64,000 nucleotides of DNA, from the NCBI GenBank assembly GCA_963971425.1, contig OZ020514.1:19007406-19071405 (forward strand). Reading direction: 5' to 3'. Source of the DNA: Bryoerythrophyllum caledonicum (lineage: Eukaryota > Streptophyta > Bryopsida > Pottiales > Pottiaceae). Under the pieces are notes generated by a model, which saw only the letters and a list, made by a program, of their open reading frames with translations, was not told the origin of the DNA and searched no databases. How positions within the stretch are numbered: the stretch's first letter is position 1; each line of letters opens with the position of its first letter. The position numbers were made by a program, and so were the translations under genes. This document shows, one piece after another, positions 7,542-59,672 of the stretch.

Positions 7542-9037
7542 CCGGATATCTCCGGATGGTTTCAGTGATACAATACAAATCGAATATAGTGATAAAACAA
7601 GCGTGAAATTTCGTTCGTCGTGATCGACAAAATGATAACAACTTTCAAGCTAACACGTTTATAAAACATACCATGTAATATGGTGTACTAAACAATTCTG
7701 TGGTAATATCGTGTAGAAGATGAGTACAGTGCATTTCAGAGCTTGAAGCATTGACATGTAAGGAATGGCGTTCAGCCATCCGGAGATATCCGATCGAAAG
7801 CAAAGTACTAAAAAAATAATTGCTCGGGTGTTCAAAAACGACAATGCTACTCTGGAATGAAGTCTCTTTACAAAAGCGTCTGATATAAGACCAAATGTAG
7901 GAAAAAACAGTGACTGGTCTCAGCAAAATTCCTGGATCAAACAACAAATTCGATCCTTGCATTAACTCTCTGAAGAGCTCTAAAGATCCTTCCAGTGAGC
8001 CGATGCGTACATGTCCGAGTCAACATGAGACCCTGTGTCACAACCAGTTTGAAATGGGCTGCAGCTGCCCTCCGAAGAAGATTCCTCCTCGTCTTCATAC
8101 CACGGGTCGTCCTCCTCTTCTTCTTCAACCGAAGCACCTCCATTAAGGGTTTCCGAAAGCCATCTCCTCTCTCTCCACCGTGGCTATGGACTAACAAGAC
8201 TTACGGCTGAAAGACAAAACATATAGATTGTTGGAGTCCTGAACCCTCTCTTATACTATCCTCCCCACCCACCCACTAATTACCCTTCTCGAGCGTAGGT
8301 ACATTGATTTAAGTTGCCATAACACCGAGACTGATGGACTTAATGGTAGATGCCAAATTCATGAATGAACAACATGGTAGGCCACGCGTCAAGCGACCTG
8401 TCGTAATGAGATGTGAGAAATACAATCTCCGCCACCAACCATCAGCATCACTTCAATCATAAGAAGGAACTGGGATGACTGATACGAACTGTGAAATTGA
8501 CCGCTCATTTTCATTTTAGCAGTGGCATGTCATAAATCAAAGAAGGAACCAACCAGGAGAATGCCCAAAATGTCTCTGTAATTTAGAAACAAGTTCCATT
8601 GTCAGAGAAATTGCAGTATCGTAGTCAGTGAAGATCTCCGGATAAAATACAATACTATTCAGAACACCTAGGTAAGCTCAAAATTGGGAAATGTGGACCC
8701 CATTGTTAAGAATGGTGGATGTGAATCTCGTATCCGGAGATCTCCGGCTAGATCTCACCGACTTGAACATGGCAATACATGAACATCCGTCCGACCACGA
8801 AATTTGTCTTCCATACCCGGAGATCTCCGGTAAGCTTTCTAAGAGACATGCGGGTCTAATAATATTCCGATGGCATAAACCAGTCAATAATGATTGTGTC
8901 ACTACTCAATGTATCCTAATTACAGTGAATGGAAGAGCACAAATCCGGTTCTCTTCACGAAAACTGGGGAGAGCTGAACGGAGGGATGTCGAACTGGGGA
9001 CCATATAATAATCATCTTCACAGCCGGAGATCTCTGG
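7542..9037. repeat. Family-A palindromes, left cluster of A1
   Basis: Five copies of CCGGAGATCTCCGG or near versions lie at 7542-7555 (CCGGATATCTCCGG), 7780-7793 (one end changed), 8734-8747 (perfect), 8817-8830 (perfect) and 9024-9037 (one mismatch). They lie on the 3' side of the minus-strand transposase, so A1 has palindromes on both flanks of the transposase gene. Confidence 0.9.
7980..8163 (-). pseudogene. Small acidic protein, internally deleted copy
   Basis: The frame reads an acidic run, EEEEDDPWYEDEEESSSEG, and then ends SDMYASAHWKDL before TAG at 7980-7982. It is homologous to the intact 115-codon acidic ORF at 42010-42357 in A2. Here about 165 bases between the start region (ATG at 8163) and the acidic run are missing, so the start is out of frame with the rest. 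I recognise no known domain. Its repeated position beside the transposase suggests a second gene of the A element. Confidence 0.6.
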
Positions 9038-9129
9038 TGCTCCTCCATAAGGACGTAGAGACTCTACGAGATTTTTCAGAAACAGAATTTCACACAACAG
9101 AATTTTAAATATTGGGACTGATCACCATA

Positions 9130-12100
9130 TCAGGGATCAGCGGCATTCGCTTTCTCTAAGTTCACAAGGGCTGCTTCCTTCATTTTACGTGGAATGGATT
9201 TCGTAAGTTGGTTAACTTTGCTTGATCAAGTCGCAAACAACACAGAACTCACATGACACCATACATGCTTCTCTTGGTCTGGAACCCAAGTGGCTTCCCA
9301 ACAGTCCTGGTACTTCCGCTTCAGATTCTTCTGCTTGTTATCAGGCTCCCAATACTTAACGAGGAATTTTCCATGGTTGACATTACCCTCATCCTTCACG
9401 ACGTCCGAAACTGCTCTACCCTATCAGACAAGATAGATGTCTGGATCACTAGGTCTAACTAAAATCCAGGACGCGAGACGAATATCATGCCAAGGATTAA
9501 ATGTGGACTTTGGGGCTTCATTGGCAGGTCCACAGTAAGGCTCGAGAACCTCATCTTCGGGAGTGACATCCAATGGTTGTGGAAGCGATCCTAGTGGATT
9601 TTCACCTCCCTCATGAGGGCCTCTCCAATCATGGGCAGGCCAGAATCCCTCTTTGAGCTCGGAGGGCGTCTATGGAAGTGGCTTGTCAAACTCGTCGATG
9701 ACGTCCTTCCAGTACTGCAGGTATGGGCGGATGGAGTCTGCGTACCCTGCGCACTTTGACATTCCGGACGCCCAATAGTCCATGTACTTTCGAAGCCCCA
9801 TCTTTATGAAGTTTTTGTTCTCCGTCGCTTTTCTGGAATTGTCTCTGGAAACATCTTGGTTTCCGACCGGGTTCTGCTCCTCATTACCCCATATGGGCTT
9901 CAAAGGAACGGGCTTCGGAGAGCCTGTTGGAAGCATGGGACGTCCGCTGTCATCTACCTTCCAGAGTTTTATCGGCTCTCTGTTCATAGGTAACCACTCT
10001 GCGTCAACGGCAGATTTCTTGAACTTCATGACCGAAACACCATCATTGTCAACGTAGAACTTGAAAAGATGCATATCACTTAGTCCCACCAGAGGTGCCG
10101 CCCCACTGCATAAGTAGCCATCGACGTAAGATTTAAAGTCGGCCACCTCTTGGATAACTTCCGGCATGAAGGCTAGTTTCTGTGACTTCATGAATGCCTT
10201 CATCACATCCGATAGAATATATGTACTGCTTTTCTTGAGTTCTTCCGATAAATGACTAAAGTAAGCATCAATATCTTCATGCGTATGTCCGACCACCAGG
10301 AAGCCAACATGTATCTCCTTGAAAACACATCGAGCTGTTAGCAGTGATAAGAATGCCATCAAGTATTGGTTCTTGTTGTCCTTTGTTGAGTTGTGGAGCT
10401 GCAGAAACAATTCTGGTGGCAACGGTTTCGGTCTCTTAAAAGCACTTGGCTCCACGGGCTCTAAAGCGTCGACACACCTGCTCTTTCCCCTCATGAGCGT
10501 CGCAAACATCGAGTTTGAAGGTGGGTGCTCGAAGAGCGCGCGCGTCTCATGTAATGGTGCTCCCTCAAGCCGCCTAGAAAGTTTTGCTAGAGAGGATATG
10601 GTGGCGTTCGAATCTCCAGGCCATAAAGCAGGAGCATAGTGAGCATACGCTCCGTCGACATGACCGTGTGCCACCATTCCGATGACATTCATGGGAAGCT
10701 GTCCGAGACCAAGTGTTGCCTTAGTAGTCCTCCACATGCGTGGAAGGGCCGTCTTCGCAGTGTCCATCTTGTCGTGAATGACACAAAGAAAGGTCAGCGG
10801 CTTCGCCTTCGACTCCTCTCTCCATGTCGCGTAAAGCTTCCGGCATGATTGTTGGTGATTCAAGTGAGCTTGCCTGTTGGTATAGAATAGCTCATATGTG
10901 GGCGTTCCCTCTGGAGTTGTCAGTAAGAACTGATTGAACTCATCGCAAGTATTGCATTTTGCGAAGGTGTTTCCAGATGGTTTAATAGCAACATTCCCAA
11001 AGAATTCCTTCCTTACCCTCCTAACTGTGGACTGACTTACAGGAGGGAGACCGTAGGAGTCGTTAATCTGCAAAATAAAAAATTAACCTAGTGAGAGGAG
11101 AAATTCAGAAGTACAATCCAACAGACGGTGCGAAGTATAGAGTTAATCAATTGAAGGTCAATGCATGTCAACGATGACCCAGCCGGAGATCTCCGGTTCA
11201 GATACTTCGACTTTGGTCGACGGAGGAAGGAGAGTACAAATCCATTGCAATATGCGGGGACTGATAACGTACATCATTGACGCAGGCTCGAATTTGCTTC
11301 CAGTTGTTTCCCGCAGGAAGATACTTGAGAGTGTCAATTCGACCATTTCCGACACTCCGCATTTGGTGAGGCATTTGATCCGCGTTGTCATTAATAATGG
11401 ACGTCATTGAGCCCATCGCCTGTATAGTCGCAAGCCGTGGGCGCTTGATGCCCTTGTTACCATGAGTTGCATTGATGACTCCTCTACTGAAATGACCGAT
11501 GTACGTGTGAAACGTGGACTTCCGAATTCCATGGATCGTGTACCATGCAACGGAGCAGACCTCCGTTCCCAAGAGCGTGACGTACTTTCTCTTCCGGTCC
11601 CCATTAACGGAGTGGAACTGCCCGCCTACCGAGATCGCATATTCCTTTCTGTCTTCAAAGGATTTGTCATAGACATTATGTCTAACAGAAAGAGTCTGGG
11701 ATTGTGGAAAATACTAGCAGCATCGTTTGGGACAGCACCTTTCCGAGCTGACTTTGCGAATTTCGTCGTCCGTAGTCCTCTTTGTGTACAAGGATTCCTT
11801 CTCGTTAAGGTCTTGCTGTCGGGAAATGAAGCGGTAAGGCTCCTTCGCACGACCCCCCAAATGAGCACCAGAATCAGGTTGTAAAGGTAGGGATGCGAAA
11901 TGATCAATTGTGCTTTTCAAAGACCGACCGAAAGGAAAACAACATTCAAGAATGGGCCAAGATTCATGACTCATAATTCTCTCCATGTCTCCCACAAAAA
12001 CATCAAGGACAATTACACCAATATTATCTTCTCCCAAACATCCACTTCGGAAATGATCCGTTGGGAAAGCGGCCATGATTCTCCCAGATCAGTGCACCAA

Positions 12101-12601
12101 CTCATCTCCGTCCAACCGCTGCATTTCAAGTCCAACCCATCGCTCTCGTGATACGAATGGAGACTCGTCGGACCGGAGATCTCCAGTTGGAATCATGACA
12201 TCCGCCCTTCTCCATAAAACGGTCCGCCGGAGTGTGTGAACAAGTGAATCGTATCCGCGTTGCAAAGGAATGAGTGGTAATTCTTCGGCCGCGGAGCATA
12301 TGGCCGTTGGTCTAAGTAATACAAACTCACTGGATTCGACAAGTATGTCAACTCCAAGCCATTGATCCATGGGGTGAACCTCAACAATGGACGCTTCTCC
12401 AATTTCGCCTGAACCTGGCCTCATAAGGTTCACGGACATTCCTGACCACAGAACCTCCGATCTTCCAGTAGACTCTTGGGATGGATCATCTACATCCGTG
12501 TAATTCACATGTACAAAATCGGGGCACTGAGCTGCGACCATGGCAAGGTCTTCCGAGTCACTCTCCCACCAATCTGAGTCAGACATAATCCCGTGCTGCA
12601 T
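9130..12601 (-). pseudogene. DUF7869-type transposase, copy A1 (decayed)
   Basis: This minus-strand gene has two main exons. The 5' exon (12601 to 11273) holds an acidic N-terminus and a helix-turn-helix-like segment (TEVCSVAWYTIHGIRKST). The 3' exon (from 11067 down) is open for about 466 codons. It carries a Cys pair (KCNTCDEF), an RNase H-like core with VIHDKMDTAK near residue 99, LHNSTKDNKNQ near 227 and VGHTHEDIDAYF near 261, as in the DUF7869 family. Against A2, TAG at 11714-11716 and TAG at 9670-9672 replace Gln, and later TGAs replace Trp (near 9460 and again near the C-terminus); a TGA near 12088 replaces Tyr. Past these the frame continues to a TGA at 9130-9132. Transposition of the parent element is the inferred role. 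This copy is probably dead. Confidence 0.85.
11068..11272 (-). other. Intron of A1 transposase containing a palindrome
   Basis: The minus-strand donor GTACGT lies at 11272-11267 after codons for CVND. The acceptor TTTTGCAG ends at 11068 before INDSYGLPP. The splice is phase 0 and restores a protein that aligns with the uninterrupted B copy (NEVNSRFGLKP). A perfect family-A palindrome sits inside at 11183-11196. In A2 the same intron keeps a palindrome (46978-46991), but its acceptor has changed from GCAG to GCAT. Confidence 0.75.
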
Positions 12602-13001
12602 CGGTGAATGATCGGTTGGTGGCTGATGTCCTCAATGAGAAATTGTGTGCATGTAGAGTCAAACTGGATGACCAACTTCAATATCATCGGCTGGGCTTGC
12701 CGGAGATCTCCGACAGAGTGGAGAATGATCAACAACGACAACTTCTTGTTTCAGTAAGGGAGAGAATGGTGGAGCTAAATGTTCCATTCGTATCTAACCG
12801 GAGATCTCCGGTTAATCAGAACTAGGCTGGCCATGAGACTTTCTATGAACATTTTACACAGAACAGAAGTAGCCGGAGATCTCCAGGAATCCTGCTTATG
12901 AAGATTCTGACATCCACTGGAATCAATGGGTGAAACCGTGGTTCCCGGGCGAGATTGGCAGAATCCAGAATAGCATGGTATGGACAGCCGGAGATCTCCG
13001 G
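12173..13001. repeat. Family-A palindrome array 5' of A1 transposase
   Basis: Copies lie at 12173-12186 (inside the open frame, read as GDLR), 12700-12713, 12798-12811 (perfect), 12873-12886 and 12988-13001 (perfect). The last four are 73-115 bp apart and lie just upstream of the transposase start near 12601. That placement suggests a promoter or subterminal binding array. Confidence 0.88.
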
Positions 13002-14057
13002 TTGGATTTTTTTTTCTTGATCGAAACAACAGCCGTACGGAATATTCGCGAGTATGGCGGTGTGATACAGTTGCAAAACCCGGTTAACAGTTCGGTTTCA
13101 CACGCCAAGAAATCACGTCATCTATATACTCGAGTCGAATAAAATTACTGCTTCTGGGCTATGACTGTATCTTCGGAGACGATTAGTTACAGAATCACTA
13201 CACGAGAGCTCCCGATCGACTCAAAAGGCAGAATGCAACACAATCTTCACCAATCCTCACAGATAGACGGCGAATACGGAATTTTACGAGGGAACATACT
13301 TAACATTCCTGGAATAATGTCGATTCGTTTCCCTACAATTATCTAGCACGATGTCGCGCACGCGAACACTCTCACTGACTCGCTCAGCTCCCACAGTATC
13401 TCAAACCTCCAGAGCAAAAAAGGATGAGAGCTGAGTTGGAGGATACTCTTATCTACCTTTCCATCACCTCCTGGAGGGAAAATTCAGGCGCTCAAATTTG
13501 AAACGAATCTTCGGCATGCATGCTCCTTCAAACTAACTGCTGTACACCATCATGATTGTGCGCATTCTTCGACGTGCCCATGCCCGAGGCCACATTCCAC
13601 TCATGACAATGAAAGGCTCGTACTCTTGGGATGACCGTATTATAAGGATACCATCTAGTTCCCAGAGTGCTGCAAATTAGAAAACGGTTGATGAAGTATC
13701 CCCCATGATGTATCTTTGAATATACTAGGGCCGCATCACGTCTTAGACTAAGTCACAGTAAAATGTAATCGTACAGGACATCTTGTACTCACCTTTGTTA
13801 ATTGAATTATACCCTACCCAAAGAAAGGAGACGGCCCTCTGCTGCCTACTAGTATTGTTCATCAGGCAATATAGGACTCAAGTAGAACATCGGCGTTCGT
13901 TTCCAATTAGAATAATCTCCAATATTTCCTAGTTCGACAAAAGTTATATGGATGCTTGAGAAGAAATGTGCACAAACAACTGACCACATGCTTTTAGAAG
14001 TACAGCAACCCAGTCCTATGAATTTGGGTACAGCTTCTGTGTTCACGCTGGATTGTG
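13002..14057. other. Spacer inside A1
   Basis: No gene was found. Short open frames lack motifs, and no splice structure ties them to neighbours. No family-A palindrome occurs here. Confidence 0.5.
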
Positions 14058-14300
14058 CATCAGGGTTTTAGGTTTTAGGGTTTAGGGTTTAGGATTTATA
14101 GTTAGGGTTAGGATTAGGGTTAGGGTTTTAGGGTTTAGGGTTCATGGTTCACGGTGTAGGGTTTAGGGTTTAGGGTTCATGGTTTTCATGGTGTAGGGTT
14201 TAGGATTTAGGATTTAGGGTTTTCACGATGTAGGGTTGAGGGTTCACGGTTCCTAGTTCACGGTTTAGGGTTTAGGGTTAAGGATTCAGGGTTCACGGTT
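14058..14300. repeat. Interstitial telomere-like repeats (TTTAGGG)
   Basis: Degenerate tandem TTTAGGG and TTAGGG units, mixed with GGTTCACGG and GGTTCATGG variants, run for about 240 bp. TTTAGGG is the common plant telomere unit. Flanking sequence on both sides shows that this is internal rather than a chromosome end. Confidence 0.9.
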
Positions 14301-14554
14301 CACCGTAGAGGGTCTGAGTTCATGAAGGTTGAGGGCTTATATCACCTATAAATGTATAAATTAAAATTATTTTATAACTATGAACTATAACCTTAAGTTT
14401 ATCGATAACCATAACTTTAAAAAAAAACCTGGATACCATATAGTGTAAGGAATTTAGCGAGAATTGAACAATAACTATTTATTTTGATACATTATAATTT
14501 AGTTAGAGAGAGAATAAAGAAGAGAAGGAGGGTAATGGATTTAATTTTAGAGTA

Positions 14555-14900
14555 GACTAGCTGTTGGCGCTTGCTTTGCAATGCATTAGCCCAACCATAT
14601 TTATGTATTTTAAATATTGAAAAGTATTAAAAAGTAAAAGGGGGAATGGTTCACTGTGTTGTTGACAACGCGGTTGATTGTAGCGTTTTTGTAGTTCACT
14701 GCATGGTTGATTACGCGATAGTTCAATCTGTGGTTTACTGCACAAATTATGATTTTAGTAGTATGACTAGGAGTTGGGGCTTGGTTTGCAACGCATTAAA
14801 TCAACCATTTTCATGTAGTTTTTATATCACAAAGTATTTAAGAAAAAAGGTAACAACAATCTACATAAAATATAAATATAGCTTTGAAACCTATGCATTA
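14555..14900. repeat. Dispersed repeat with TTTGCAATGCATT and GGTTGA words
   Basis: GCTTGCTTTGCAATGCATTA at 14568 and a variant near 14779 flank a block rich in GTTCACTGCATGGTTGATTA-like words. The same pieces in reverse orientation occur near 52020, 57620 and 57820, and GCAGTCAACCGC words near 57490-57560. This looks like a multi-copy non-coding element whose ends I could not define. Confidence 0.65.
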
Positions 14901-14939
14901 ATTTGAATAATGTAATAGAATGGGATAGAAAAAAAATAC

Positions 14940-15830
14940 TATTACAATAGTTCAATATTATTAACTAAGGATGGAGATTGAGAAGGAGGGGAGAGTAAAA
15001 CTAAAATAAATAAATAAAACAAGTAGGAGGGAGAGTAAGGGAGGGAGAGTAAGAGAGGGAGAGACTTGAGGGATTTATTTTTAGAGTAGTTTATATTTTT
15101 AGAATATGTAATAAGGGGAATCTAAAAAGAAAATCAAATGTAAAAAAGAGATGGAGAGGGAGAGTAAGGAAGAGAGGGAGAATAAGGGAGGGAGAGTAAG
15201 GGATAGGGAGAGTAAGGAAGAGAGGGAGAGTAAGGGAGGGAGAGTAAGGGAGGGAGAGTAAGGGAGGGAGAGTAAGGGAGAGTAAGGGATAGGGAGAGTA
15301 AGCGAGGAAGAGTGCGGGATTGTTTTAAAGAGTGGTTAATTATTTTTAGAATGTAAATTTATTGAAATGAGGAGAAATCCAAAAAATTAAAATTCAAGAG
15401 TAAAATAGAGATGGAGATGGAAAAGGAGGGGAGAGTAAAACTAAAATAAGTAAAAAACAAGTAGGAGGGAGAGTAAAGAAGGGACATAAAGGAGAGTAAG
15501 AGAGAGAGAGACTTGAGGGATTTATTTTTAGAGTAGTTTATATTTTTAGAATATGTAATAAGGGGAATCTAAAAAGAAAATCAAATGTAAAAAAGAGATG
15601 GGGAGGGAGAGTAAGGGAGAGGAAGAGTAAGAGAGGGAGAGTAAGGGATTTTCTTAGAGTAGTAAGTTAATTTAAGAATGTGTAATTATTGAAATCATGG
15701 GGAGTCTAAAAAATATTAGAATCAAGATTAAAAAAGAGATGGAGATGGAGAAGGAGGGGAGAGTAGAACAAAAATAAGAAAAATAAGTGAGGGAAAGAAG
15801 GGAGGGAGAGTAACGGAAAGAGAGATTAAG
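14940..15830. repeat. Purine-rich tandem repeat, about 445-bp unit
   Basis: Blocks of GGGAGGGAGAGTAAG alternate with a spacer containing GACTTGAGGGATTTATTT, seen at about 15063 and again about 448 bp later. A third partial unit begins near 15745. Within blocks the short GAGAGTAAGG motif is itself repeated. The strand asymmetry is strong (almost pure purine on the plus strand), with no coding potential. Confidence 0.85.
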
Positions 15831-16882
15831 CTTTTTCACTTATGTCCTTTTAAATTCAAGTATAATAATTACTCTAATACCCGGTGAACCCGAGTATCTA
15901 TTATAGTCATATCTAATACCCATGAAACCGGGTATCAATACGTCTTGTCACGCATGCTCACGACATTGACAATGTCATAATTGTGAAATGTACACGTTGT
16001 ATATGTACGTGATTTCAGCTGATTTTTTAACTTCACCCATTGTCATCATGAGCCGTCACACCCTTGCGCCGTCCAGCTTGTCCTCATTGGGTTTTGGGCC
16101 CTCCAAGCATGAACCATTTCTTGTTTTCTATGGGTTTTGTCTTCGTAATGTCGAAGGTAGTGAGCGGAAGTGGCGGGAGGGGTTTTCTTTCTTGATTTGC
16201 GGAGTCGGCGTCGACGCATTAGGTTAGGTTCGTATGCGCTGTGAGAGGCCGTTGGTGTGCGAGGTGACTGTTGATTTAAGTGAGGGACATTGAGCGTACC
16301 GTGGAGAGGTTGTTAACTGCATATAGACTGAAGGTAAGAGAGCAGGACTGAAAGAGAGCGAATGCACTAGGAAGAAAATTGAAGAGCGTCTAGGTTCAGC
16401 AGCCAAGAGTGAACAACGCTGCGGTTGGGTGGCGTCAACACGAACGACCACGACGTACGGGTGCGCCGATTCGGCAAGTGAAGAAGTATGTAAAGTCTCA
16501 GAAATGGCTTTCAGTGAAATTTCAGTTGAATTTGCACAGGACTGCTTAGAATCGTCAGTGGAGCAGGTGTAGGGTTCGGTAAGCTTCATTAGGGTTCGAG
16601 AGAGTCGAATAGTACTGATGTTGTTAATTGTTTGAGCGTAATAGAAGGGTTTAGGGTTTAGGGTTCTGGTGTTTTGTGCATTCAGTTTCGAAGGGCCATA
16701 AATGAAAAATTTATGCAGTGTTGATGTATATTCCGCCGAATTCTTGTCAGTCAAAACTGGACCTTACATTCTAGGGCTTTTGAGTAATTGTAGAGTTTGT
16801 CGTTCTGAGTTGTTGAATGCTGATGTATTGCAGAGCTGTGTATACACTTTAATCCAGAGTAGTTCTTGGAGGAGATTGGGAA
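15831..16882. other. Upstream region of the ParB-like/HAD gene
   Basis: The first part has partly mirrored words ATACCCGG and CCGGGTAT near 15880-15930. A minus-strand open frame at 16224-16754 has no recognisable domain, and I treat it as incidental. The segment just before 16883 probably contains promoter and 5' untranslated sequence for the plus-strand gene, with one short TTTAGGGTTTAGGG run near 16650. Confidence 0.4.
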
Positions 16883-16932
16883 ATGGCGACTACAACAGGG
16901 ACGTCGAGTGAGACTCCGTGGGATGGAAACCG
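16883..16932 (+). CDS. Candidate first exon of ParB-like/HAD gene
   Basis: ATG at 16883 opens a 50-base exon reading MATTTGTSSETPWDGN and ending at a strong donor, CCG followed by GTAAGT at 16933. The context AAATGGCG is good for a plant start. The next strong acceptor (TCATCTTGCAG) is about 1 kb away at 17975. The family-A array lies in the proposed first intron. The link to the downstream exons is inferred from order and splice signals only. Confidence 0.5.
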
Positions 16933-17498
16933 GTAAGTCAACATAATTGAATTGTTTTTGCTCAGTCCGAGCGACCGGGTGGGGTTCCATTATTTGAGTG
17001 AGTTTCGAATTAGTTCTATTGTTACCGAGTGGACAAACACTTGAATGATTTAGATAAACCTCAGAAATTGCATACTAGAATTCAGATGTCTGTTTGGCTA
17101 TAGTCGATTGGTTTTCTATTGTCCCGTGAAGATAATTGTATATCTATTCATGAATATGCTAATGATTTTGGAATTCTAAGAATGTTTGAATGTGTTTGTC
17201 CTCACTGAGACTGTCGAGTCTGGTTCGATTCAATGTATATAGTGTAATCCATGTAGAGTCGTCAAATTTGGCGTTCCATCGTAACATTAGCGGATTATTC
17301 TTCTTGTGTGTAAGGTCGAGTTTTAACAGAATTGTGTGAGCTTTTTTGAAACATTTATTTATGTTCTTGAATATGTAACTTGTTTTTTTAATATGTCAAA
17401 CTTCAAGAGTTCTACGTCAAACCTCTCTGTAAATGAATGTAAATATTCGAATGATGATATGATGCGATTAGTGCTACGAAGAGCCGTACTTGCTTCAG

Positions 17499-17814
17499 CC
17501 GGAGATCTCTGGCTGTATCCCAAATTGAATACGGAGTTCCAGTAATCAGCCGAAGATCTCCGGATGATGTAGCGGTCAGATGAATATGTAAACCCTATAC
17601 AGGCATTAGTAATTCTCGAAAGCAGCCGGAGATCTCCGGACATATCGAAAAAGTGGAGGTTCGCGTTGATGGACATTTGAATATCGGGAACCTCCACTTA
17701 GAGGTCTTCAACCGGAGATCTCCGGATCAGGTCAGAAATGGATCCGTTAGAGCAGCCAGGATTCGATCCTTGTCGGATGCACTTGACTTCCCCAAATCAG
17801 CCGGAGATCTCCGG
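17499..17814. repeat. Family-A palindrome array 5' of ParB-like exon
   Basis: Five copies lie at 17499-17512 (one mismatch), 17550-17563 (one mismatch), 17626-17639, 17712-17725 and 17801-17814 (the last three perfect), spaced 50-90 bp. Most are preceded by CAG, giving CAGCCGGAGATCTCCGG. The array lies between the candidate first exon and the ParB-like exon. That makes it either an intronic array or the promoter of a gene starting near 18 kb. Confidence 0.93.
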
Positions 17815-17975
17815 GTACTGTCCCTTGCTGGCACTGTGATACAGATTTGGAAGCACGATTCATGGATTCAACATCTATGAATATGTCTGGTGATATAGTG
17901 TCGGATTCCCGATATTGACCAGACAATTGCAGTGATTTTTAACTGCCTGTTTGTTCTTTCAAAATCATCTTGCAG

Positions 17976-19192
17976 GGATTCGTGGTCATCCACACTTCCA
18001 ATTGAATGTCGACCCGGGAAACTTGGGGCGTTTGTAGAATATTGGCTCCTTGAGTTTGTATACAGAGGGATACACAATGTCGGCTACGTATACATATGCC
18101 AAAGAGCATATCCCAGTGGGGCATCAAGCTCATTAAAACCTCTGATGGTGCCTGGGAATTCGTCCCTCAGCTTCGGATTGGCAAACGGGGACACCCCGAC
18201 ATTGGTCTCCAGGTTCTCGAGATGCAGGGTCTTGATGACGACGTCAGTCTCGTTGTCGTCCAGGAGATCGTGGACTCCTCCACCGAGCCACATATATACG
18301 GCTTGATCCTAGAATCATCTAAGATTTCGGATGAGATGGTGCAGACCTGCCAGATTGAGAACTTTTTATTTGCCCCTCCAACGGGTGATACATGGTTTCC
18401 GGAGTACATTAATGAGCAGTGGAAGTGGATGGCTGAAGCACAAGAGAAGTCCCGAATGCCCGTTCCTGGCGCAACTCCCAATTTGTCTCTGACAGCAGCA
18501 TCGATCTTGGCAAGAAAATGCAAGACCACCTTGAAGACTTCGACCCCAGGTTCCTCATCGCGGGCGGAGAAGGGGAAGAAAGCGAAGGCCGATGAGCCTG
18601 GCCTCGCAATCGAAAAGTGCCTGAACTTCACACAGGCTGACCTCACCAAAATGAAGCGGACAGAAGTGGAAGCAATTGGCAAGGTACTCGACGACGCGTT
18701 CAAAAACGTTTACATACACAATAATAAGCCTTTGACAGTAGAAGACCCTGTCACGAAGAAGGATGTCGTGAAGCTCGTTCATTTCGATAGGCTGCACCAG
18801 GCCCCCCCTGGAGGATTAGTATACAGGGGCATCCAGAGAGAACGGCTTGAAGGAATTATCAACGCAGTTCGCGCGTCTTCGAAGGCCACCGCACCTGAGA
18901 TTCACATTCGAGTCCTGCCACTGAAGAAGAATCCTGAAGGAAGTAAGGTGGAGTTTTTCGCAACCAAGCCGACTAAGGAGGACTGCCTGCGAGACTCGAC
19001 ACACTTTTACATTATCGGAGGTCAGCATACTATGGCGGCGCACAAGGTTTTGTCACACGAATTGCCAGCAACGTGGACACTCGAAGAGATCTCCCACTTT
19101 TCTATCATCCCGGTTTGGACAAAACCGGACCCCAAAGACATGACCCTGCTACAGCTCTCGCGCGCTCTTAACCAAGATCTGACGGGTCTGGG
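17976..19192 (+). CDS. ParB-like domain exon
   Basis: The acceptor CATCTTGCAG ends at 17975, and the frame is clear from an ATG at 18096. The 366-codon stretch contains YRGIQRERLEG near residue 242 and FYIIGGQHTMAAHKVL near 305. That spacing and the GGQHT motif resemble the ParB/sulfiredoxin-fold family, whose members carry GxHR-type motifs; here Thr replaces the usual Arg. Residues 145-170 are a Lys/Ser-rich linker. Upstream of 18096 two other frames also look protein-like, so a small indel or another intron is likely. A donor GTAGGA follows at 19193 and overlaps an in-frame TAG. Biochemical activity is unknown. Confidence 0.6.
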
Positions 19193-19378
19193 GTAGGAGC
19201 AGAGTTTCATTGAGCAGCTGCAAACGTGCAGAGTAAAATGGTTTGAGTTCGGAAAACCAGCCCCCCAACTGTATAGTTGTCCACAATCTGATGCATTCTC
19301 GATAAGCATACATTCTCAACCTGAATAGATTTCATTTCCGTGGATGTGCTCTGTCCTCACAGCAACCAAACCAATCAT

Positions 19379-19392
19379 CCGGAGATCTCCGG
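19379..19392. repeat. Family-A palindrome in intron
   Basis: A perfect CCGGAGATCTCCGG lies between the ParB-like exon and the next exon, about 30 bases before the acceptor TTCTAATTGCAG at 19424. Confidence 0.85.
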
Positions 19393-19424
19393 CTGCTTAC
19401 ACCCTGTTATTGTTCTAATTGCAG

Positions 19425-20716
19425 ACGTTCCAACGACAAGTGGTGCCAACGGTTTTTACACACCTCGGTAAAATAGACCCAAAGACGCAAAGGTCCCACT
19501 TCTATTCAAAATGGATGATGCGCTGGTCTAGAAGTGGATCCGAATCGATAGGATGTTCGTCGCTGGACTCTTACTGGACTCCAACGGGAAGACAGGGGAC
19601 CCAGCTAAGCTGAAGCGGAAACCTCTGGTGCAGAACGACTTCAAGCCTCTTTACAAAATGCGCTCTGAAGACCTAGACTACCTCGCGAACTTAGTGCTCG
19701 AGATGAAGGTCTGTGTAAAGTCCTCCAAAGCGGCAAACCAAGGTACTATGAAAGGGCAAGCGGAGACTCTCGAAAATGCAGCGAACAGGGAGAAGAGAAT
19801 CCGTGCAATGAAGAATGAACTGATGCTTAAATACAAGTCGCACCCCCTTTCCTCGAAGTCTGTTGACTTCGTTCCATACACGAAGGAGCAGTGGGACGCA
19901 TTTGCCGAAGAGAGGAATATTGGAAGGGTCCTGCTCGAGTCCTGGGTGGACGCCGCTAATCACTCTGCCAAGGGTAAAGCTTGGCTTGAGGGTCGGCTGA
20001 AGGTGATTAACAAGGATACCGACCCCACTCTAGACTTCCTCGTGTCCATTTGGAGTCAACACATAATAGAAGATGCTGCCGAGGCCACATCCACGGATGA
20101 CACGTCCCTGTTCGACTCCAAATACACGTACAAGGTTATGCCTGACAGAGGGGGCGAGATCGCCGAAGTACTTATCATGCCGGACATTCAGCAGTGGCGT
20201 AACGTCACTGACCCTCACTTTTACTTTTTTTTCCTTTACCGCGTGAAAGACGACATATGCCGTGCACAGGTGCTGGATGTGTTTGACTTCAAAATCATTT
20301 TCGACCATCTCGAAGTGGACACGAAGGACGGGCGGACGAGGGTCATATCACCGTCGGTTCTTATCACTGACGTCGCAGGATTCGTTGAATTGAAGAGGTA
20401 TATCACTCTTCGGCAGAGAGAGTCCAGAGGCAAGGTGAAATTGTGGGCAACGCATGTCGTCTACTACTTCCTCCACCCTGGTGATGGATTTCTGGTTCCA
20501 GTAATTTGGGTCGAGGAGACAGTATACTACGTATTCCTATATGAATACGATTCAAGCGAGACACCTGCTCAGTCATTTAAGAGGCTCTTCAAAGGCCACC
20601 CGGAAAGAATGCCGGCTTTCTTTTCAGCCGCTCAACATAAAGAGACCATCCAGTGCTGGAAGCAAACCGGTGTCCGACAACTGAGGATCTCGGTCCTCGA
20701 TTCGCTATTCACTTGA
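19425..20716 (+). CDS. Middle exon of ParB-like/HAD gene
   Basis: The acceptor ends at 19424. The open frame from 19553 runs 387 codons and reads like a folded, charged protein (MFVAGLLLDSNGKTGDP at its start; DFKIIFDHLEVDTKDGRTRV further on). I recognise no domain name. The first 130 bases are uncertain: two frames alternate, with TAG codons, and a frameshift is likely. The frame ends with TGA at 20714-20716, just before a donor-like GTATGG at 20730. Since the next exon is clearly part of the same gene, this TGA may be a decay mutation or mark an alternative exon end. Confidence 0.5.
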
Positions 20717-20887
20717 TACATCAGAGAGGGTATGGTGGTTGTCAATGTTCATGGAGGACCACATTTAATATACCTCGGCTTGGTAAGCAGAAAATCCTTC
20801 CCATGCAATCCAATGTCTAAGATTTCCCGTCCAGATACAGTTATATGAATTGGATGACGCCTTACTCAGGTTGTTTTTGGTTTGCAG

Positions 20888-21103
20888 ACTCACGACGTGC
20901 AGGTCCTCGAGATTGTGAACAGCGAAGATGCCAAAGTCAAGGCCGAATCCTACGCAAAACAAATATTCAAATTCCACTTGAATATCTTAGCCGACGTTAC
21001 CGACGCCGATACCGAGGAGGCAGTGGAGACTGACATCACTGGGTCGACCCCAGGCGCTAGGATTCAAACACGGGCTATGTCGAGGATGAATTACACCGGC
21101 GAG
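20888..21103 (+). CDS. Exon of ParB-like/HAD gene (hydrophilic)
   Basis: The acceptor TTTGGTTTGCAG ends at 20887, and the exon reads THDVQVLEIVNSEDAKVKAE for 72 codons, ending GAG before donor GTATAA at 21104. It is phase 0 at both ends and joins in frame to the next exon at 21327. It is rich in Asp, Glu and Thr at its C-terminal half. No domain was recognised. Confidence 0.6.
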
Positions 21104-21130
21104 GTATAACGCCTACAGATACTACCTTAC

Positions 21131-21256
21131 CCGGAGATATCTGGCTGTTCATTCGATTCGGATGCCCTCCATTCTTCAGGACTCTTCTTTATCATTGCCA
21201 TGTTCAATTTTAGTTTGCGCGGTAGACAAGGACAACTATGAATCGGAGATCTCCGG
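21131..21256. repeat. Two family-A palindromes in intron
   Basis: CCGGAGATATCTGG at 21131-21144 and TCGGAGATCTCCGG at 21243-21256 lie in the intron between the exons ending at 21103 and starting at 21327. Each has one or two changes from the consensus. Confidence 0.8.
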
Positions 21257-21326
21257 GTGTATGATACCGTTAACTTTTGTATTGCGTCTTAATGTTTTCC
21301 ACACTGACTTCGTCAATGTGACGCAG

Positions 21327-21944: not shown

Positions 21945-22040
21945 GTGAACAGTTACTTGTCCATCAAACCTTCTTCATTGTTCTCCGGACAGTTCACTCT
22001 ACGCAGACCGTGTTCTTACCACTCTATTTCTCGTATTTAG

Positions 22041-22152
22041 GTGTCGGCAGGATCAACACAGTTGAAGGATGTCGGTGGCAGAAACCTCGCACAGACTGCT
22101 CAAGTCGTTGGTGTAGCTCAGACTTCTAGGGATACTACACCTACTGTCCTAG
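22041..22152 (+). CDS. Short linker exon
   Basis: The acceptor CTCGTATTTAG ends at 22040 and the exon reads VSAGSTQLKDVGGRNLAQTA. It ends CCTAG before donor GTGCCT with one base left over, which joins in phase with GT at 22322 to make a Gly codon. The phase match supports the model. Confidence 0.55.
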
Positions 22153-22321
22153 GTGCCTAATATGGACATTCATACTTACGTGCCATCATCTATATAGTGT
22201 TCATTCTTCCATCGAGCATTTCAGGATTGTGAGTGCGGAACACTTTCATATGTATCTTTGCAATTTCTCTAAGCTGTACAAGTTCCTCATCTCAGCCGAC
22301 GTACTCGTATTTTGGGTTCAG

Positions 22322-24100: not shown

Positions 24101-24292
24101 CTGCATGTTCCGGACTCACGTATTGTCTAAATTCAAATTTGGTCGCTCTAGCCATTTCTTCCTTCATAAGTGTCATTGGTGATGCATTTAATGCTTGAAA
24201 AGTACTCTACACTCCTCGGCTTTTATGCTTCACTATCTTTTATGAGGCACATCTCCGGATCTTTCTTTTAGTCCTTAGTCCAGAATTCACCT

Positions 24293-45780: not shown

Positions 45781-46977
45781 TCGGCCATCATTGTCCAGCG
45801 ATGGAACTCATATTTGTGGCGTCTTCCTTCTGTTTTGACTAAAATTGGTAGTTGCCAAGAACCCAGTGTTTCCCAAGGCAAATTCTCTCCCCACGACACC
45901 GCCCTGCTGCATAGGTAGCCATCGACGTACAATTTAAAGTCGGCCACCTCTTAGATAACTTCCGGCATGAAGGCTAGTTTCTGTGACTTCATGAATGCCT
46001 ATATGAAATCCGCTAGAATATATGTACTATTTTTCTTTAGTTCCTTTGATAGATGACTAAATTAAGCATCAATATCTTGATGCATATGTCCGACCACCAA
46101 GAAGCCAACCTAAATCTCCTTGAAAATACCTTGAGCGGTTTGCAGTGATAAGAATGCCATCAAGTATTGGTTCTTGTTGTCCTTTGTTGAGTTGTGGAGC
46201 TGCAGAAACAATTCTGGTGGCAACAGTTTCGGTCCCTTAAAAGCACTCGGCTCCACGGGCTCTAAAGTGTCAACGCACCTGCTCTTTCCCCTCATGAGCG
46301 CCGCGAACATTGAGTTGGGAGGTGGGTGCTCGAAGAGCGCGCGCGTCTCATGTAATGGTGCTCCCTCAAAGCGCCTAAAATTTTTTGCCAGAGAGGAGAT
46401 GGTAGCGTTCGAATCTCCAGGCCATAGAGCATAGTAAGCATACGCTCTGTTGACATGACCGTGTGCCACCATTCCGGTGACATTCATAGGAAGCTGTCCG
46501 AGACCACATGTTGCCTTAGTAGTCCTCCACATGCGTGGAAGGGCTGTCTTCGCACTGTCCATCTTGTTGTGAATGACACAAAGAAAAGGTCTATGGCTTC
46601 GCCTTCGACTCCTCTCTCCATGTCACGTAAAGCTTCCGGCATGATTGTTGGTGATTCAAGTGAGCCTGCCTGTAGCTACAGAATAGCTCGTACGTGGGCG
46701 TTCCCATTGGAGTCGTCAGTAAGAATTGATTGAACTCATCGCAAGTACTGCATTATGCGGAGGTGCTTCCAGATGGATTGATAGCATTTTTTCCAAAGAA
46801 TTCTTTCTTATCCTGCTAACTGTGGACTGACTTACAGGAGGCAGATTGTAGGAGTCGTTTGTATGCAAAATAAAACAATAACCTAGTGAGAGGAGAATTT
46901 TAGAAGAACAATCCAACAGACAGTGCGAAGTACAGAGTTGATCAATTGAAGGTCAATGCATGTCAGCGATGACCTAG

Positions 46978-46991
46978 CCGAAGATCTCCGG
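46978..46991. repeat. Family-A palindrome in A2 transposase intron
   Basis: CCGAAGATCTCCGG, one change from consensus, sits at the same intron position as the A1 copy at 11183. Confidence 0.8.
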
Positions 46992-47966
46992 TTCAGAAAC
47001 TACGACTTTGGTCAACCAAGGAAGGAGAGTACAAGTCCATTGCAATATGCAGGGACTGATAAAGTACATCATTGACGTTGGCTCGAATTTGCTTCCAGTT
47101 GTTTCCCACAAGAAGATACTTGAGAGTGTCAATCCGACCATTCTCGATACTCCGCATTTGGTGAGGCATTTGATCCGCGTTGTCATTAACAATGGGTGTC
47201 ATTGATCTTATCGCTTGTATAGTGGCAAGCCGTGGGCGCTTGATGCCCTTGTTATAGTGAGTAGCATGGATGATTTGTCTACTGAATTGTCCCACGTAGG
47301 TGTGAAACGTGGACTTTCGAATTAAATGGATCATTACCATGCAACGAAGCAGACCTCCGTTCCCAAGTGCGTGACGTACTTTCTCTTCTGGTCCCCATCA
47401 ATGGAGTGAAACTGCTTGCCTACCGAGATCGCATATTCCTTTCTATCTTCAAAGGATTTGTCATAGAATTTTTGTCTAACAGAAAGAGCACGGGATTGTT
47501 GATAATATTGGCAGCAGCGTTTGGGAGAGCACCTTTCCGAGCTGACCTTGCAAATATCGTCGTCGGTAGTCCTCTTGGTATACAGGGATTCTTTCTTGTT
47601 AAGGTCTTGCTGTCGAGAAATGAAGCGGTAAGGCTCCTTCGCACGACCCCCCAAATGAGCACCAGAATCAGGTTGTAAAGGCAGGGATGCGAAATGATCA
47701 ATTGTGCTTTTCAAAGACCACTCGGAAGGTAAACAACATTCAAGAATGGGCCACGGTTCATGACTCATAATTCTCTCCGTGTCCCCCACGAAAATGTTGA
47801 GGTCGGTTACACCAATCTAATCTTCTCCCAAGCAACCACTACGGAAATGATCCGCTGGTAACGCGGCCATGATTCTCCCAGAGTAGAGCACCAACCCATT
47901 TCCGTCTAACTGCTGCACTTGAAGTTCAACCCAACGCTCTCATGGTACAAATGGAAAGTCGTCCGA

Positions 47967-48777
47967 CCGGAGATCTCTGGATGGAATCATGACATCCGTC
48001 CTTCTCCACAAGACGGTCTGCTGGAGTGTATGAACAAGTGAATCGTATCCGCGTTGCAAGGGAATGACTGGTAATTCTTCCGCCGTGGACGTGCTGGCCG
48101 TTAGTCTAAGTAATACGAACTCACTCGAACCAACTAGTATATCAACTCCAAGCCTTTGTTCCACATGGTGAACCTCAACAATGGACGCCTCTCCAATTTC
48201 ACCTGAACCCGGCTTTATAAGGTTCACGGACATTCCTGACCAAAGAACCTCCGACCTTCCAGTAGATTCTTGGGATGGATCATTGTCTTCACATGTCCAA
48301 AATTGGGGCACTGAGCCGCGACCATGGCAAGGTCGTCCGGGTCACGCTCCCACAAATCTGACTCAGATATACTTCCGTGCTCCATCGGTGGATGTTCGGC
48401 TGGTGGCAGATGCCTTCAATGAGAGAATGAGTGGATGTGGATACGAACTAGATGATCAAGGTCATTATCCAAGGCTGGGCTAGCCGGAGATCTCCTACTG
48501 AGTAGAGAATGATCAACAATGACGACTTGTTTAAGTAAGGAAGAGAAGGGTGGAGCTAAAAGTTCCATTTGCATCTAACCAGAGATCTCCAGTTAATCAG
48601 AACGAGGCTGTGGAGCAAACGTTTGAAGAACATTCCACACAAGAGTAGCCGAAGATCTCCGGATATCGTGCGTTAGACGAAAATGACAGCCACTGGATTC
48701 AAGGGGAGCAACTGTGGTTAGCAATCGAGCTTGGCAGAATCCAGACTAGCACGGCATGAACAACCGGAGATCTCCGT
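47967..48777. repeat. Family-A palindrome array 5' of A2 transposase
   Basis: Copies lie at 47967-47980, 48484-48497, 48579-48592, 48649-48662 and 48764-48777, matching the A1 array copy for copy. All five carry one or two changes. The pair 12798 (perfect) and 48579 (CCAGAGATCTCCAG) differ by two G-to-A changes at CpG sites that do not preserve the palindrome, so there is no compensation in this dead copy. Confidence 0.85.
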
Positions 48778-49471
48778 TTGGCTTCGTGGATGGTTCGCTA
48801 GCCGTTGCGGCCGTAGTTGTTGGTCGCCTTGGAGGAGGACGGCTTGATGTTCTTGGAATGGATGAACCCGATGGATTCGCCACATCTGCAGTACTTGCTC
48901 GAGGATGTCGTCGTTGCGTGCCTTCTACTGGTGCTTGACGAGCTTCAAATGCAGACAATAAGTGGTGAACTCGTACCAACCGCCTATTGACCTTCACGGC
49001 GTCATTGTTATCCCAGGGAAGGTACTTCTCCAACGCCGCTTTAAGAGACCCCTGACCGTTCCTCACCACGCATTCAAGCAGTTCTTGGAAATCAAATTGG
49101 CCGTATGAAGTTCCTACTTTCACTACAATGGAGTGGCACTGTGGAAGATCATCTCCATCTTCATTGACAGCCTGGACTCCAAGTACAATGAACTCCATTT
49201 GCTGCTGCTCAATGAATGAAACTCTTTCATTTCGGTTCAGCGATACAAACGGAACGTTGTCGTTAACTTTGAGCGTGATTTGGATACACTTCCCAGCTTT
49301 TGCGAGGGACCAGCTCTTAACGACATCCTTGAATGCCCATAGACTTCCATAGTTCTCTACGACTTCTTCTATGAAGGGTGACGGCGCTACTCGATTTACA
49401 AACCGCTCGATGAAATACTCAGCGGATGAGTAGTCGTAGTTGTCATCCCAATCCATTTCGGTTGTCGCCAT
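48746..49471 (-). CDS. Unknown protein, intact frame
   Basis: ATG at 49471 (MATTEMDWDDNYDYSSAEYF) opens about 241 codons without a stop. The first 165 residues look folded (FIERFVNRVAPSPFIEEVVE; then VPFVSLNRNERVSFIEQQQ). The last 60 are Pro/Thr/Arg-rich (RTSSRPPPRRPTTTAATA) and run through the family-A palindrome at 48764 (read GDLR). No domain was recognised. It lies upstream of the A2 transposase on the same strand, so it could be that gene's first exon or a separate gene. A family-B palindrome array begins 45 bases upstream of its start. Confidence 0.6.
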   Translation of the reverse strand: MATTEMDWDDNYDYSSAEYFIERFVNRVAPSPFIEEVVENYGSLWAFKDVVKSWSLAKAGKCIQITLKVNDNVPFVSLNRNERVSFIEQQQMEFIVLGVQAVNEDGDDLPQCHSIVVKVGTSYGQFDFQELLECVVRNGQGSLKAALEKYLPWDNNDAVKVNRRLVRVHHLLSAFEARQAPVEGTQRRHPRASTADVANPSGSSIPRTSSRPPPRRPTTTAATASEPSTKPNGDLRLFMPC

Positions 49472-49515
49472 CTGAAATATCAAAATGAAACTCAATTTAG
49501 TAGTACATTATCAAG

Positions 49516-49888
49516 CTTATCCTTGGCCCGAGGATAAGTCACCCTGTAACTAATCAGCGTTTTTTATCGGCAGGCTTATTTTTTATTCTAGAACATTTGA
49601 TTAACTACTTTGCCGGTTTGCAATCGTTTGATTTAAGTGCATATCGTTGTTTATTTTGTTTAATCTATCCTCGGCTCGAGAATACTTTTTCAACATCTGG
49701 TATATTGTTACTTGGGTTAAGGATCAAGTCGATTGTTAGTGAATCTTATGACGCTTACGTGACTAGTGATCTTCATTTTGGACTTTATCCTCGGATCGAG
49801 GATAAAACGTTGTTTAGTATTGGTTGCAATTAGTCAAATACACAGTAATTGAACCAAGGCAAGGCGGTTATCCTCGACTCGAGGATAA
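49516..49888. repeat. Family-B palindrome array 5' of unknown ORF
   Basis: Four copies of TATCCTCGANTCGAGGATA or near versions lie at 49516-49538, 49666-49684, 49785-49806 (perfect arms) and 49868-49888 (perfect arms), spaced 80-150 bp. They lie immediately upstream of the minus-strand ATG at 49471. Confidence 0.92.
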
Positions 49889-50732: not shown

Positions 50733-50763
<31 letters not shown>

Positions 50764-58373: not shown

Positions 58374-58842
58374 CACCTCTCTTTTTTGGGCACCAGAGCA
58401 TATCTCGACATTCATACTCCCCCCTGGAAATTCTCATTTCGAACTCTTTCCTCTCTGTGCCTCGCCTCCACTTCCACTTTTGTGTTTCAACTCTTGCCTC
58501 TACAGTAAGATACTCAACTAAGGTTTATATTGTTCTAGGTCTTTTTTGGGGACACGAATGTCTTGGATAGGTTTTTGGGGAAGGAGTATAAGTGTGGCTG
58601 TATTTCTTATATTGTTGTATTTCTTGCACGTTGATTGAAGTCATTTTCATTTTCTTTTTGTCTCTGTCACACCGGTCATTTCAATGTTTTTTCCTCTACA
58701 TCATGTGCAAGAGTAAAGGTCGACTTCCCCATCGCACGTTATTAAGTGTTGTTGACCATTGAGTAGTGCAGCGATCCTTGTTCGCACTTCAACTTAATCT
58801 CTATCTGTGACACTCCGCATATGACGGAATCACTGTAGCACT

Positions 58843-59672
58843 GTTATCCTCGTGTCGAGGATAACCTAAACTGATATAATCAGATGAGATGAATAAATAA
58901 ATAACCAACAATGACTTATCCTCGACTCGAGGATAAAACAAAGGAATCATAGTGCTCACAAATTTTAAGTGTAAAGTATTGTACGAATACAGCGATAATG
59001 TTTTAAAATTACAGTTATCCTCGAGTCGAAGATAATGGATGAAAACTTGTTGAATTTCAATGATAATATAATGAGTATATTGCATGAGATCATTGGTTGG
59101 ATCTGGGTTTGATGTCTTGTCCATCTTCGCCCATTATTGATTGTTTATCCCCCAAGGGTGTTGTCCTCGAGTCGAGGATATCCGATATCCGTGGAAAGGT
59201 ACTAAATATTTCGATATTAAAATTTATGATAGTTATTCTCAAATCGAGGATAACTGACTTTGAGTTTGATGTCATCTAAGGCGTATGTTGAATGTTAATT
59301 GTCAAATATCAGATTTATGTTTTTTGGTAAATTGCCAATGTCATTTATGCTCTCAAATCTTTGAGAAATCTTTTGGAGTTCTATCCTCGGTTCGAGGATA
59401 TCTCACTGAGGCTTTATGCAATTCATATTTTAAATCATAACTCGATTGGTTCTTGACAAATTAAAATTTAATGAGATAATTTTCTAGTTATGAACTTGAT
59501 TGATTAATCTTTGAATGTTTCCCTTTGTTCGGAGTGATGTGTATATGTGGAGTGTTTCTTCGGGTTCAAATCATTAGTGATTTGTTAAACCTCACTGTGG
59601 ATTTAATGAATGATCTCCTAATTCAGTATTTATATTTTTTATATCTGCAATTATCCTCGTATCGAGAATAAG
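58843..59672. repeat. Family-B palindrome array 5' of B transposase
   Basis: Seven copies are present: 58843-58865 (perfect arms, GTTATCCTCGTGTCGAGGAT core), 58915-58938, 59014-59036, 59161-59180, 59232-59254, 59381-59401 and 59651-59672. Spacing is 70-270 bp. The last copy ends about 107 bases before the transposase ATG at 59779. Arms are well conserved while the central bases vary. Confidence 0.95.

What the first reader, a model, noticed from the sequence alone, without database searches (positions are those of the whole stretch)
7542..59672. Three unrelated palindrome families, each tied to its own genes and placed 5' of them
Family A (CCGGAGATCTCCGG) arrays lie upstream of the A1 and A2 transposases and the ParB/HAD gene. 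Family B (TATCCTCGANTCGAGGATA) lies upstream of the B transposase and the unknown ORF at 48746. Family C (GGCGGAGACGTCCCCGCC) lies upstream of the kinase-like and both RING-like genes. Same design (3-7 copies, 50-270 bp apart, roughly 45-420 bp from the start) with different sequence suggests each gene set has a cognate DNA-binding factor, perhaps the transposase. This could be an undescribed self-recognition or autoregulatory system of these elements.
Basis: partly seen in the sequence, partly recalled or inferred. Interest (0 to 1): 0.9.

Follow-up and report, generated by a model that had tools for sequence, protein, structure and literature searches.

The report
Transposon families with private palindrome barcodes
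Several families of large jumping genes in one plant-like genome each carry many copies of their own private palindromic DNA word around their genes, which looks like a docking-site barcode that lets each family recognise and switch on itself.

Summary
The palindromes are real and far beyond chance. In the 437 Mb host genome motif A occurs 2718 times against 3 for its reversed control, B 914 against 0, C 1292/1242 (forward/reverse) against 0. The reading needs correcting. A1 and the "ParB/HAD" gene are one ~17 kb transposon (window 7415-24321) with two head-to-head genes. A2 is a second, damaged copy fused to a B-family gene at 48784. Sites lie 5', 3' and between exons, not only 5'. C belongs to another kind of element, beside a DUF659 (hAT-type) ORF. 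Predictions: a DUF7869 contig from another assembly (L001) carries palindrome D, which then occurs 3707 times against 0 here, beside D-type transposases. Of two further families picked by transposase similarity, one (F) has its own palindrome; the other showed none, perhaps because its promoter was not covered. Related transposases share palindrome cores (B/D CTCGANTCGAG; A/F GATC). Families A, B and D share a homologous accessory gene. Best reading: family-specific docking sites for an element-encoded protein, working like Arabidopsis VANC anti-silencing. No binding was shown, and some DUF7869 families had no array in the pieces read.

The parts
7415..24321 (.). A element, one ~16.9 kb DNA transposon with two head-to-head genes
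   Evidence: Terminal inverted repeats at both ends (2 of 22 mismatches). Aligns end to end with element E1 at C1:1561635-1579389 (about 91-94% in the main blocks). Flanking 4 bp TATT/TCTT (1 mismatch) in the window; TAGG and ACAA exact in E1 and E2.
7415..7443 (+). left terminal inverted repeat
24293..24321 (-). right terminal inverted repeat
9133..12631 (-). DUF7869 transposase gene of the A element, decayed (in-frame stops; LHN where the alignment consensus has LDN)
   Evidence: PF25273 E=1.9e-41; 62% to P0001 over 650 residues, stops inside
   Evidence: 51% to P0110; PF03031 E=1.9e-9 for 22447-22995; whether both parts are one gene was not settled
12700..13001 (.). A array 5' of the transposase (4 sites)
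17499..17814 (.). A array 5' of the accessory gene (5 sites)
7542..9037 (.). A sites 3' of the transposase, up to near the left end (5 sites)
11183..11196 (.). A site between transposase exon ORFs
12173..12186 (.). A site inside the first transposase ORF; coding or intronic not settled
19379..19392 (.). A site between accessory exon ORFs
21131..24100 (.). A sites within and 3' of the accessory region, to near the right end (5 sites)
40532..48784 (.). A2, second truncated A-element copy carrying two inserts (40586-41449, 44286-45899)
   Evidence: 77-88% identity to 7412-13008 in the longer blocks; 10 A sites
48746..49507 (-). 5' part of a B-family accessory gene, fused at 48784 to A2
   Evidence: 385 first-look candidates, 150 scored; homology mostly ends at residue 242-244
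49518..49887 (.). B array 5' of the B accessory gene (4 sites)
   Evidence: the same layout at C1:16268001-16271500 with 7 sites next to a 47%-identical relative
58845..59670 (.). B array 5' of the B transposase (7 sites)
60079..62534 (+). B-family DUF7869 transposase, decayed
   Evidence: PF25273 E=1.2e-33; 54.8% to L001 over 367 residues, 3 stops in the fragment
30138..40531 (.). C element (partial): kinase-like gene (-), RING-like gene (+), second ORF related to the RING gene's first part, C sites at 33647, 35927-36030 and 39415-39490
   Evidence: 83-90% identity in the main blocks to C1:7840601-7852600, whose kinase ORF passes PF00069 (3.6e-9) and which has a DUF659 ORF (4.1e-35); its RING match (2.8e-5) is below Pfam's cut-off

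Best explanation
Each palindrome family is the cognate docking site of one transposon family's own sequence-specific DNA-binding protein, repeated in clusters through the element's noncoding DNA. Shown here: families A, B, C, D and F each have a different palindrome; in A, B and D arrays sit in front of both head-to-head genes, and A and B sites also lie 3' or between exon ORFs; A sites are conserved above their surroundings; related transposases have related palindromes (B with D, A with F). Inferred: the palindrome is bound by a dimer of an element-encoded protein, most likely the GQH-motif accessory protein shared by families A, B and D (or the N-terminal helix-turn-helix-like part of the transposase). 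Binding at many sites switches on or de-silences the genes of that family in trans, so that a family recognises itself and no other. The C elements, with an unrelated hAT-type transposase ORF and kinase and RING-like genes, appear to have reached the same design on their own.
For: Genome counts: A 2718 v 3, B 914 v 0, C 1292/1242 v 0, D 3707 v 0. The 50 listed A sites all lie in four A copies. 24 site positions in an alignment of four A copies, 21 of them present in all four; mismatch 4.1% (core 1.6%) v 9.6% other noncoding and 7.4% coding. Leave-one-out with CpG-matched controls: 2.5-5.2% v 7.1-10.1%, reached by 0, 0, 0.4 and 0% of 1000 samples with each of the 4 reference copies. 6 of 9 B accessory relatives on C1 below 18.83 Mb have an exact B site within 500 bp 5'; another at 47% protein identity has seven sites identical over the central 15 bp, five of them exact over all 19. 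Two more B accessory copies have B sites both 5' and inside or after the first ORF. Predicted from L001, D was found beside D transposases (C1:7678110, C1:12824437) although the N-terminal halves are only 70% identical. F: 3 exact and 3 one-mismatch sites just 5' of its transposase. Accessory homology of A, B and D.
Against: No binding, expression or methylation data. The accessory protein matches no Pfam or NCBIfam family and no PDB sequence credibly, and its own model is poor (pLDDT 42). Not every DUF7869 family has an array in what was read: none 5' of L023, none 5' or 3' of L028 and L038 (one cluster at 60%), a non-palindromic 25-bp tandem 5' of L033, none 3' of L022, none in L067 where the promoter may not be covered. 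3 of 9 B relatives lack an exact upstream site. 5 of 24 A positions fall in ORF ranges of E1 that I took as coding, though some of these may be introns. The F word is an imperfect palindrome and has no genome count.
Confidence: 0.62

Rival explanations
1. The palindromes are transposase-binding sites used to assemble the transposition complex, like the subterminal repeats of CACTA or Ac elements (recalled).
For: Sites also lie near the ends (first at 7542, 127 bp from the left end; last ends at 24100, 221 bp from the right end). The palindrome type follows the transposase type. The transposase N-terminus has helix-turn-helix matches, all below Pfam's cut-off.
Against: The densest arrays sit at promoters in the middle of a 17 kb element, and others lie between exon ORFs. 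The inverted repeats at the ends are a different sequence.
Confidence: 0.2
2. A host transcription factor or host repressor binds them; the elements carry or attract host sites.
For: Promoter-proximal position; palindromes are typical of dimeric factors (general knowledge).
Against: Each family has a different palindrome, the type follows the transposase, and the 50 listed A sites lie inside A elements, not at other genes.
Confidence: 0.1
3. The sites have no function and are merely inherited by copying within repeat families.
For: A2 is a copy of A1; sites keep the same places in all copies read, as copying would give; the L022-family site is part of a 61-bp tandem repeat.
Against: Many near-identical palindromes at different places within one element; lower mismatch than matched controls; D conserved between L001 and this genome.
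Confidence: 0.06

Closest known systems
VANDAL transposons and VANC anti-silencing proteins of Arabidopsis (PMC5735166, passages seen; PMC10398659, abstract and outline seen)
   Same: DNA transposons with a transposase gene and an accessory gene; short family-specific motifs accumulated in noncoding regions; related families with different motifs; TE-encoded protein recognises its own family.
   Different: There the motifs are short words not described as palindromes (YAGTATTAY; AGTTGTCC/AC) and the elements MULE-like (recalled). Here they are 14-21 bp palindromes in DUF7869 elements and in elements with a DUF659 ORF, with a GQH-motif accessory protein in A, B and D. Binding and demethylation were shown there, nothing of the kind here.
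CACTA (En/Spm) elements with TNPA-bound subterminal repeats (recalled; search listing only)
   Same: Many copies of a short motif near the ends, bound by an element protein; large elements with more than one product.
   Different: Here TIRs begin ATGC, TSD is 4 bp, and arrays are also mid-element and between exon ORFs.
hAT superfamily (for the C element; link of DUF659 to hAT is recalled)
   Same: DUF659 domain in the ORF 0.3 kb downstream of a C array.
   Different: Lies with kinase and RING-like genes that also have C arrays; ends and TSD not determined.
Bacterial ParB-parS (recalled)
   Same: A GQH-x-V-x-A motif reminiscent of ParB-like folds, and palindromic sites in clusters.
   Different: No profile or structure match to ParB was found; resemblance only.

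Membership tests
VANDAL/VANC | MULE-type transposase (VANA; feature recalled) | tested here: not met
   The A, B and L001 transposase ORFs match PF25273 DUF7869 above cut-off and no MULE domain up to the E-values used
VANDAL/VANC | VANC homologue encoded by the element | not tested
   No VANC sequence was compared; the accessory protein matches no Pfam or NCBIfam family
VANDAL/VANC (works like) | Family-specific motif repeated in noncoding DNA of its own family | tested here: met
VANDAL/VANC (works like) | Element protein binds the motif and removes methylation | not testable with these tools
   needs EMSA/DAP-seq and bisulfite data
CACTA | TIRs starting CACTA and 3-bp TSD (recalled) | tested here: not met
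   TIR ATGC..., TSD TAGG and ACAA (4 bp) in 2 of 3 copies with both ends seen, 1 mismatch in the third
DDE/D transposase with RNase H-like fold | RNase H-like catalytic core with conserved acidic residues | tested here: inconclusive
   [not shown]
hAT (C element) | hAT-type transposase domain | tested here: inconclusive
   PF04937 DUF659 E=4.1e-35 in L063:1051-1998; the ORF is cut by the end of the stretch and the link of DUF659 to hAT is recalled
hAT (C element) | 8-bp TSD and short TIRs | not tested
   ends of the C element not determined
ParB | ParB/Srx domain by profile | tested here: inconclusive
   No ParB-type Pfam hit up to E 0.5, none in NCBIfam or among PDB sequences; only a GQHxVxA motif

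The most novel reading that the evidence does not exclude
A transposon self-recognition system of general use in this lineage. An accessory GQH protein, distantly like ParB, loads at family-specific palindromes and spreads along its own element the way ParB spreads from parS, shielding the whole element from silencing. Protein and palindrome co-diverge, splitting one transposon stock into many mutually blind families, and an unrelated hAT-type element has converged on the same scheme.
Probability: 0.15. Interest if true: 0.95.

Novelty: new variant of a known kind. Interest (0 to 1): 0.77.

Why it matters
It gives four DUF7869 families (A, B, D, F) and a different, DUF659-linked element (C) in one genome with readable, different self-recognition words, and for A, B, C and D hundreds to thousands of natural sites. 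How selfish DNA keeps its regulators specific, and how protein and site diverge together, could be tested directly. The palindromes also mark which transposon family a decayed fragment came from. VANC/VANDAL is the plant example of sequence-specific anti-silencing known to me (from the two papers seen and recall).

Tried and rejected
Taking A1, A2 and ParB/HAD as separate genes that share a motif: rejected. ORF 48746 as kin of the A accessory by profile comparison of the truncated window copy: no signal; the full-length B gene did show it. Viral contigs: no relatives for the A1 protein, alignment A1 or alignment A2. L002 and L003: distant DUF7869; no repeated palindrome in L002; L003 has an 89-bp tandem with GTTCG...CGAAC palindromes 3' of the match, not followed. 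Sequence search for a solved DUF7869 structure: none up to E 1. Foldseek gave no match under E 0.001. Structure of the accessory protein: too poor to use. Genome-wide count of the F motif: not completed. Literature: no paper in the held library has the term DUF7869; of two searches on moss/palindrome/anti-silencing terms I saw the first 10 listed of 142 and of 32 papers, titles and abstract starts only, and none described this system. The right end of the B element was not found; more B sites lie 15 kb beyond the window.

Selections made before counts: one search left out 1-7300; one search used only C1 below 18.83 Mb, because the tool listed only the first 50 B sites, and only the relatives among the 150 scored; searches list only the first places, although the counts are whole. 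Of the 30 DUF7869 loci, flanks were fetched for five (L022, L023, L033, L038, L028), and for L023 and L033 only the 5' side. Of the two families picked only one 5' piece each was read.
Full report
What is there. The window lies in a 437 Mb eukaryotic genome, with TTTAGGG-type repeats at 14061-14299 and protein relatives in a liverwort and in unnamed metagenomes; the species is not known to me. Motif A has 32 sites at up to 2 mismatches against 0.09 expected, B 15 at up to 3 against 0, C 7 matches at 4 places against 0.01. A search that presupposed no motif found the same A and B clusters and almost nothing in shuffled DNA; it did not find C.

One element, not three genes. A 22-bp inverted repeat occurs three times in the window: at 7422 (+), 40539 (+) and 24314 (-), the next best being 6 mismatches away. 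Two of these enclose A1 and the ParB/HAD gene. Four further places rich in A sites were fetched; E1 aligns end to end with the window's 7.4-24.3 kb (about 91-94% in the main blocks), E2 likewise with E1, and E1 and E2 show ATGC-starting ends flanked by exact 4-bp duplications TAGG and ACAA; the window copy shows TATT/TCTT. E3 lacks one inverted repeat and E4 is a half copy. So the A element is a ~17 kb transposon with a DUF7869 transposase and an accessory gene placed head to head. The window copy of the transposase is dead (in-frame stops); E1 has an open frame of 535 codons followed by one of 650. A2 is a truncated copy whose right side is fused at 48784 to a B-family gene: relatives of that gene mostly match residues up to 242-244 of 253.

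Where the sites are. In an alignment of E1, E2, E3 and the window copy there are 24 site positions, 21 of them present in all four copies: 5' of both genes, 3' of both, between exon ORFs, and near both ends. 5 of 24 fall in the seven ORF ranges of E1 that I took as coding. Mismatch between copies is 4.1% at sites and 1.6% in their core, against 9.6% in other noncoding DNA, 11.7% in close flanks and 7.4% in coding DNA. Because sites were picked by match, I repeated this with sites defined in one copy and scored only in the other three, against CpG-matched 14-mers: 5.2, 4.2, 3.8 and 2.5% against 9.8, 10.1, 7.1 and 9.5%, with 0, 0, 0.4 and 0% of 1000 samples as low.

Genome test. Exact counts against the reversed motif: A 2718 v 3, B 914 v 0, C 1292/1242 v 0, D 3707 v 0. 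The 50 A sites listed, of 2718, all fall in the four fetched A copies. Of 9 scored relatives of the B accessory gene on C1 below 18.83 Mb, 6 have an exact B site within 500 bp upstream against 0.009 by random placement, 1 more has sites within 5 kb, 2 have none. A relative only 47% identical in protein has 7 sites right in front of it, identical over the central 15 bp, 5 of them exact over all 19.

Predictions. A scan of prokaryotic genomes found a DUF7869 gene in a small contig filed under a desert-crust cyanobacterial bin, L001, probably a eukaryotic stray. It carries its own palindrome, TTTAGCTCGANTCGAGCTAAA: three copies 5' (one exact, two with one mismatch) and several degenerate ones 3'. 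Its transposase is nearer to B (54.8%) than to A (34%), and its palindrome shares B's core CTCGANTCGAG. In the window's genome transposases 81-83% identical to L001 exist (77 scored of 4275 first-look candidates), the palindrome occurs 3707 times, and both of the D transposases that lie in the listed part of C1 have exact sites 1.4-1.6 kb in front of the matched part. D also has a head-to-head accessory gene with its own array. From two more families were picked by transposase similarity and one 5' piece of each was read. One, F, has 3 exact and 3 one-mismatch copies of CGTARGATCYTACG (an imperfect palindrome, 6 of 7 pairs) just in front of the transposase; among those compared at the N-terminus A is its nearest relative (41.8%), and it shares with A the length of 14 bp and the central GATC. 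The other, L067, shows none, but its promoter may lie outside the piece. Other negatives: no array 5' of L023, none 5' or 3' of L028 and L038 (one cluster), a non-palindromic tandem 5' of L033, none 3' of L022. 5' of L022 there are five copies of an imperfect palindrome inside a 61-bp tandem repeat. So arrays occur in several but not in all DUF7869 families read.

The accessory gene. The A, B and D accessory proteins are homologous: D against B E=1.6e-32 and 2.4e-31, A-type relative P0111 against D 1e-8 and against B 5e-9; 16 columns are invariant in 8 sequences, among them G-Q-H, V and A. No library names it, so "ParB" is a resemblance only. The A element also has an NIF/HAD phosphatase-like part (E=4.1e-13 in E1).

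Family C. In several of the copies listed, C sites fall in ~8 kb units with four arrays. In the one copy read, C1:7840601-7852600, they lie beyond the 3' side of the kinase-like gene (PF00069, 3.6e-9), between it and the RING-like gene (best RING match 2.8e-5, below cut-off), in front of a related ORF, and 0.3 kb in front of an ORF with DUF659 (4.1e-35), which I recall as hAT-linked. So C is a different kind of transposon with the same layout; whether kinase, RING and DUF659 genes are one element rests on the shared arrays.

How it most likely works. Shown: family-private palindromes in promoters, 3' regions and between exon ORFs; conserved in A; following the transposase lineage; with a shared accessory gene in A, B and D. 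Inferred: a dimeric element-encoded protein binds them and acts on the genes of its own family. The nearest known system is VANC/VANDAL, where motifs in noncoding DNA direct a TE-encoded protein that induces loss of methylation (PMC5735166, passages seen). A role in transposition itself is the main rival; the mid-element promoter arrays speak against it as the only role.

Limits.

Noticed in passing
window 1340-7189: Long 43-bp minisatellite (TTCGTCTTCGTGATCTCC... unit) with strong strand skew, ending about 220 bp before the A element.
   Followed up: no
window 14061-14299: Degenerate interstitial TTTAGGG array inside the A element, between its two genes.
   Followed up: no
window 51350-52479, 57750-58100, 14544-14914 (reverse): AT-rich dispersed repeats of about 150-250 bp; the copies at 51-52 kb and 57.9 kb carry four decayed B palindromes and may be non-autonomous relatives of B.
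   Followed up: partly
G000 whole genome: DUF7869 transposases are very numerous (3613 first-look candidates), many of the scored ones with open frames of 1066-1087 codons, so probably recently active families.
   Followed up: partly
G000:C1: Relatives of the 48746 gene seem over-represented on contig C1 (65 Mb), many with stops; not counted. Could be a non-recombining chromosome.
   Followed up: no
window 7435-7452 and 40552-40569: The left end of the A element carries two head-to-head copies of the inverted-repeat core, forming an exact palindrome TGGACTTTGCAAAGTCCA.
   Followed up: partly
[not shown]
   Followed up: no
L050:1028-1480: 61-bp tandem repeat with GAGGCATATGTCTC in front of a different DUF7869 family.
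   Followed up: partly
L003:4972-5149: 89-bp tandem repeat holding GTTCG...CGAAC palindromes 3' of a distant DUF7869 match.
   Followed up: no
window 63715-63983: Fragment similar (74%) to the DUF659 ORF found beside the C element elsewhere.
   Followed up: no
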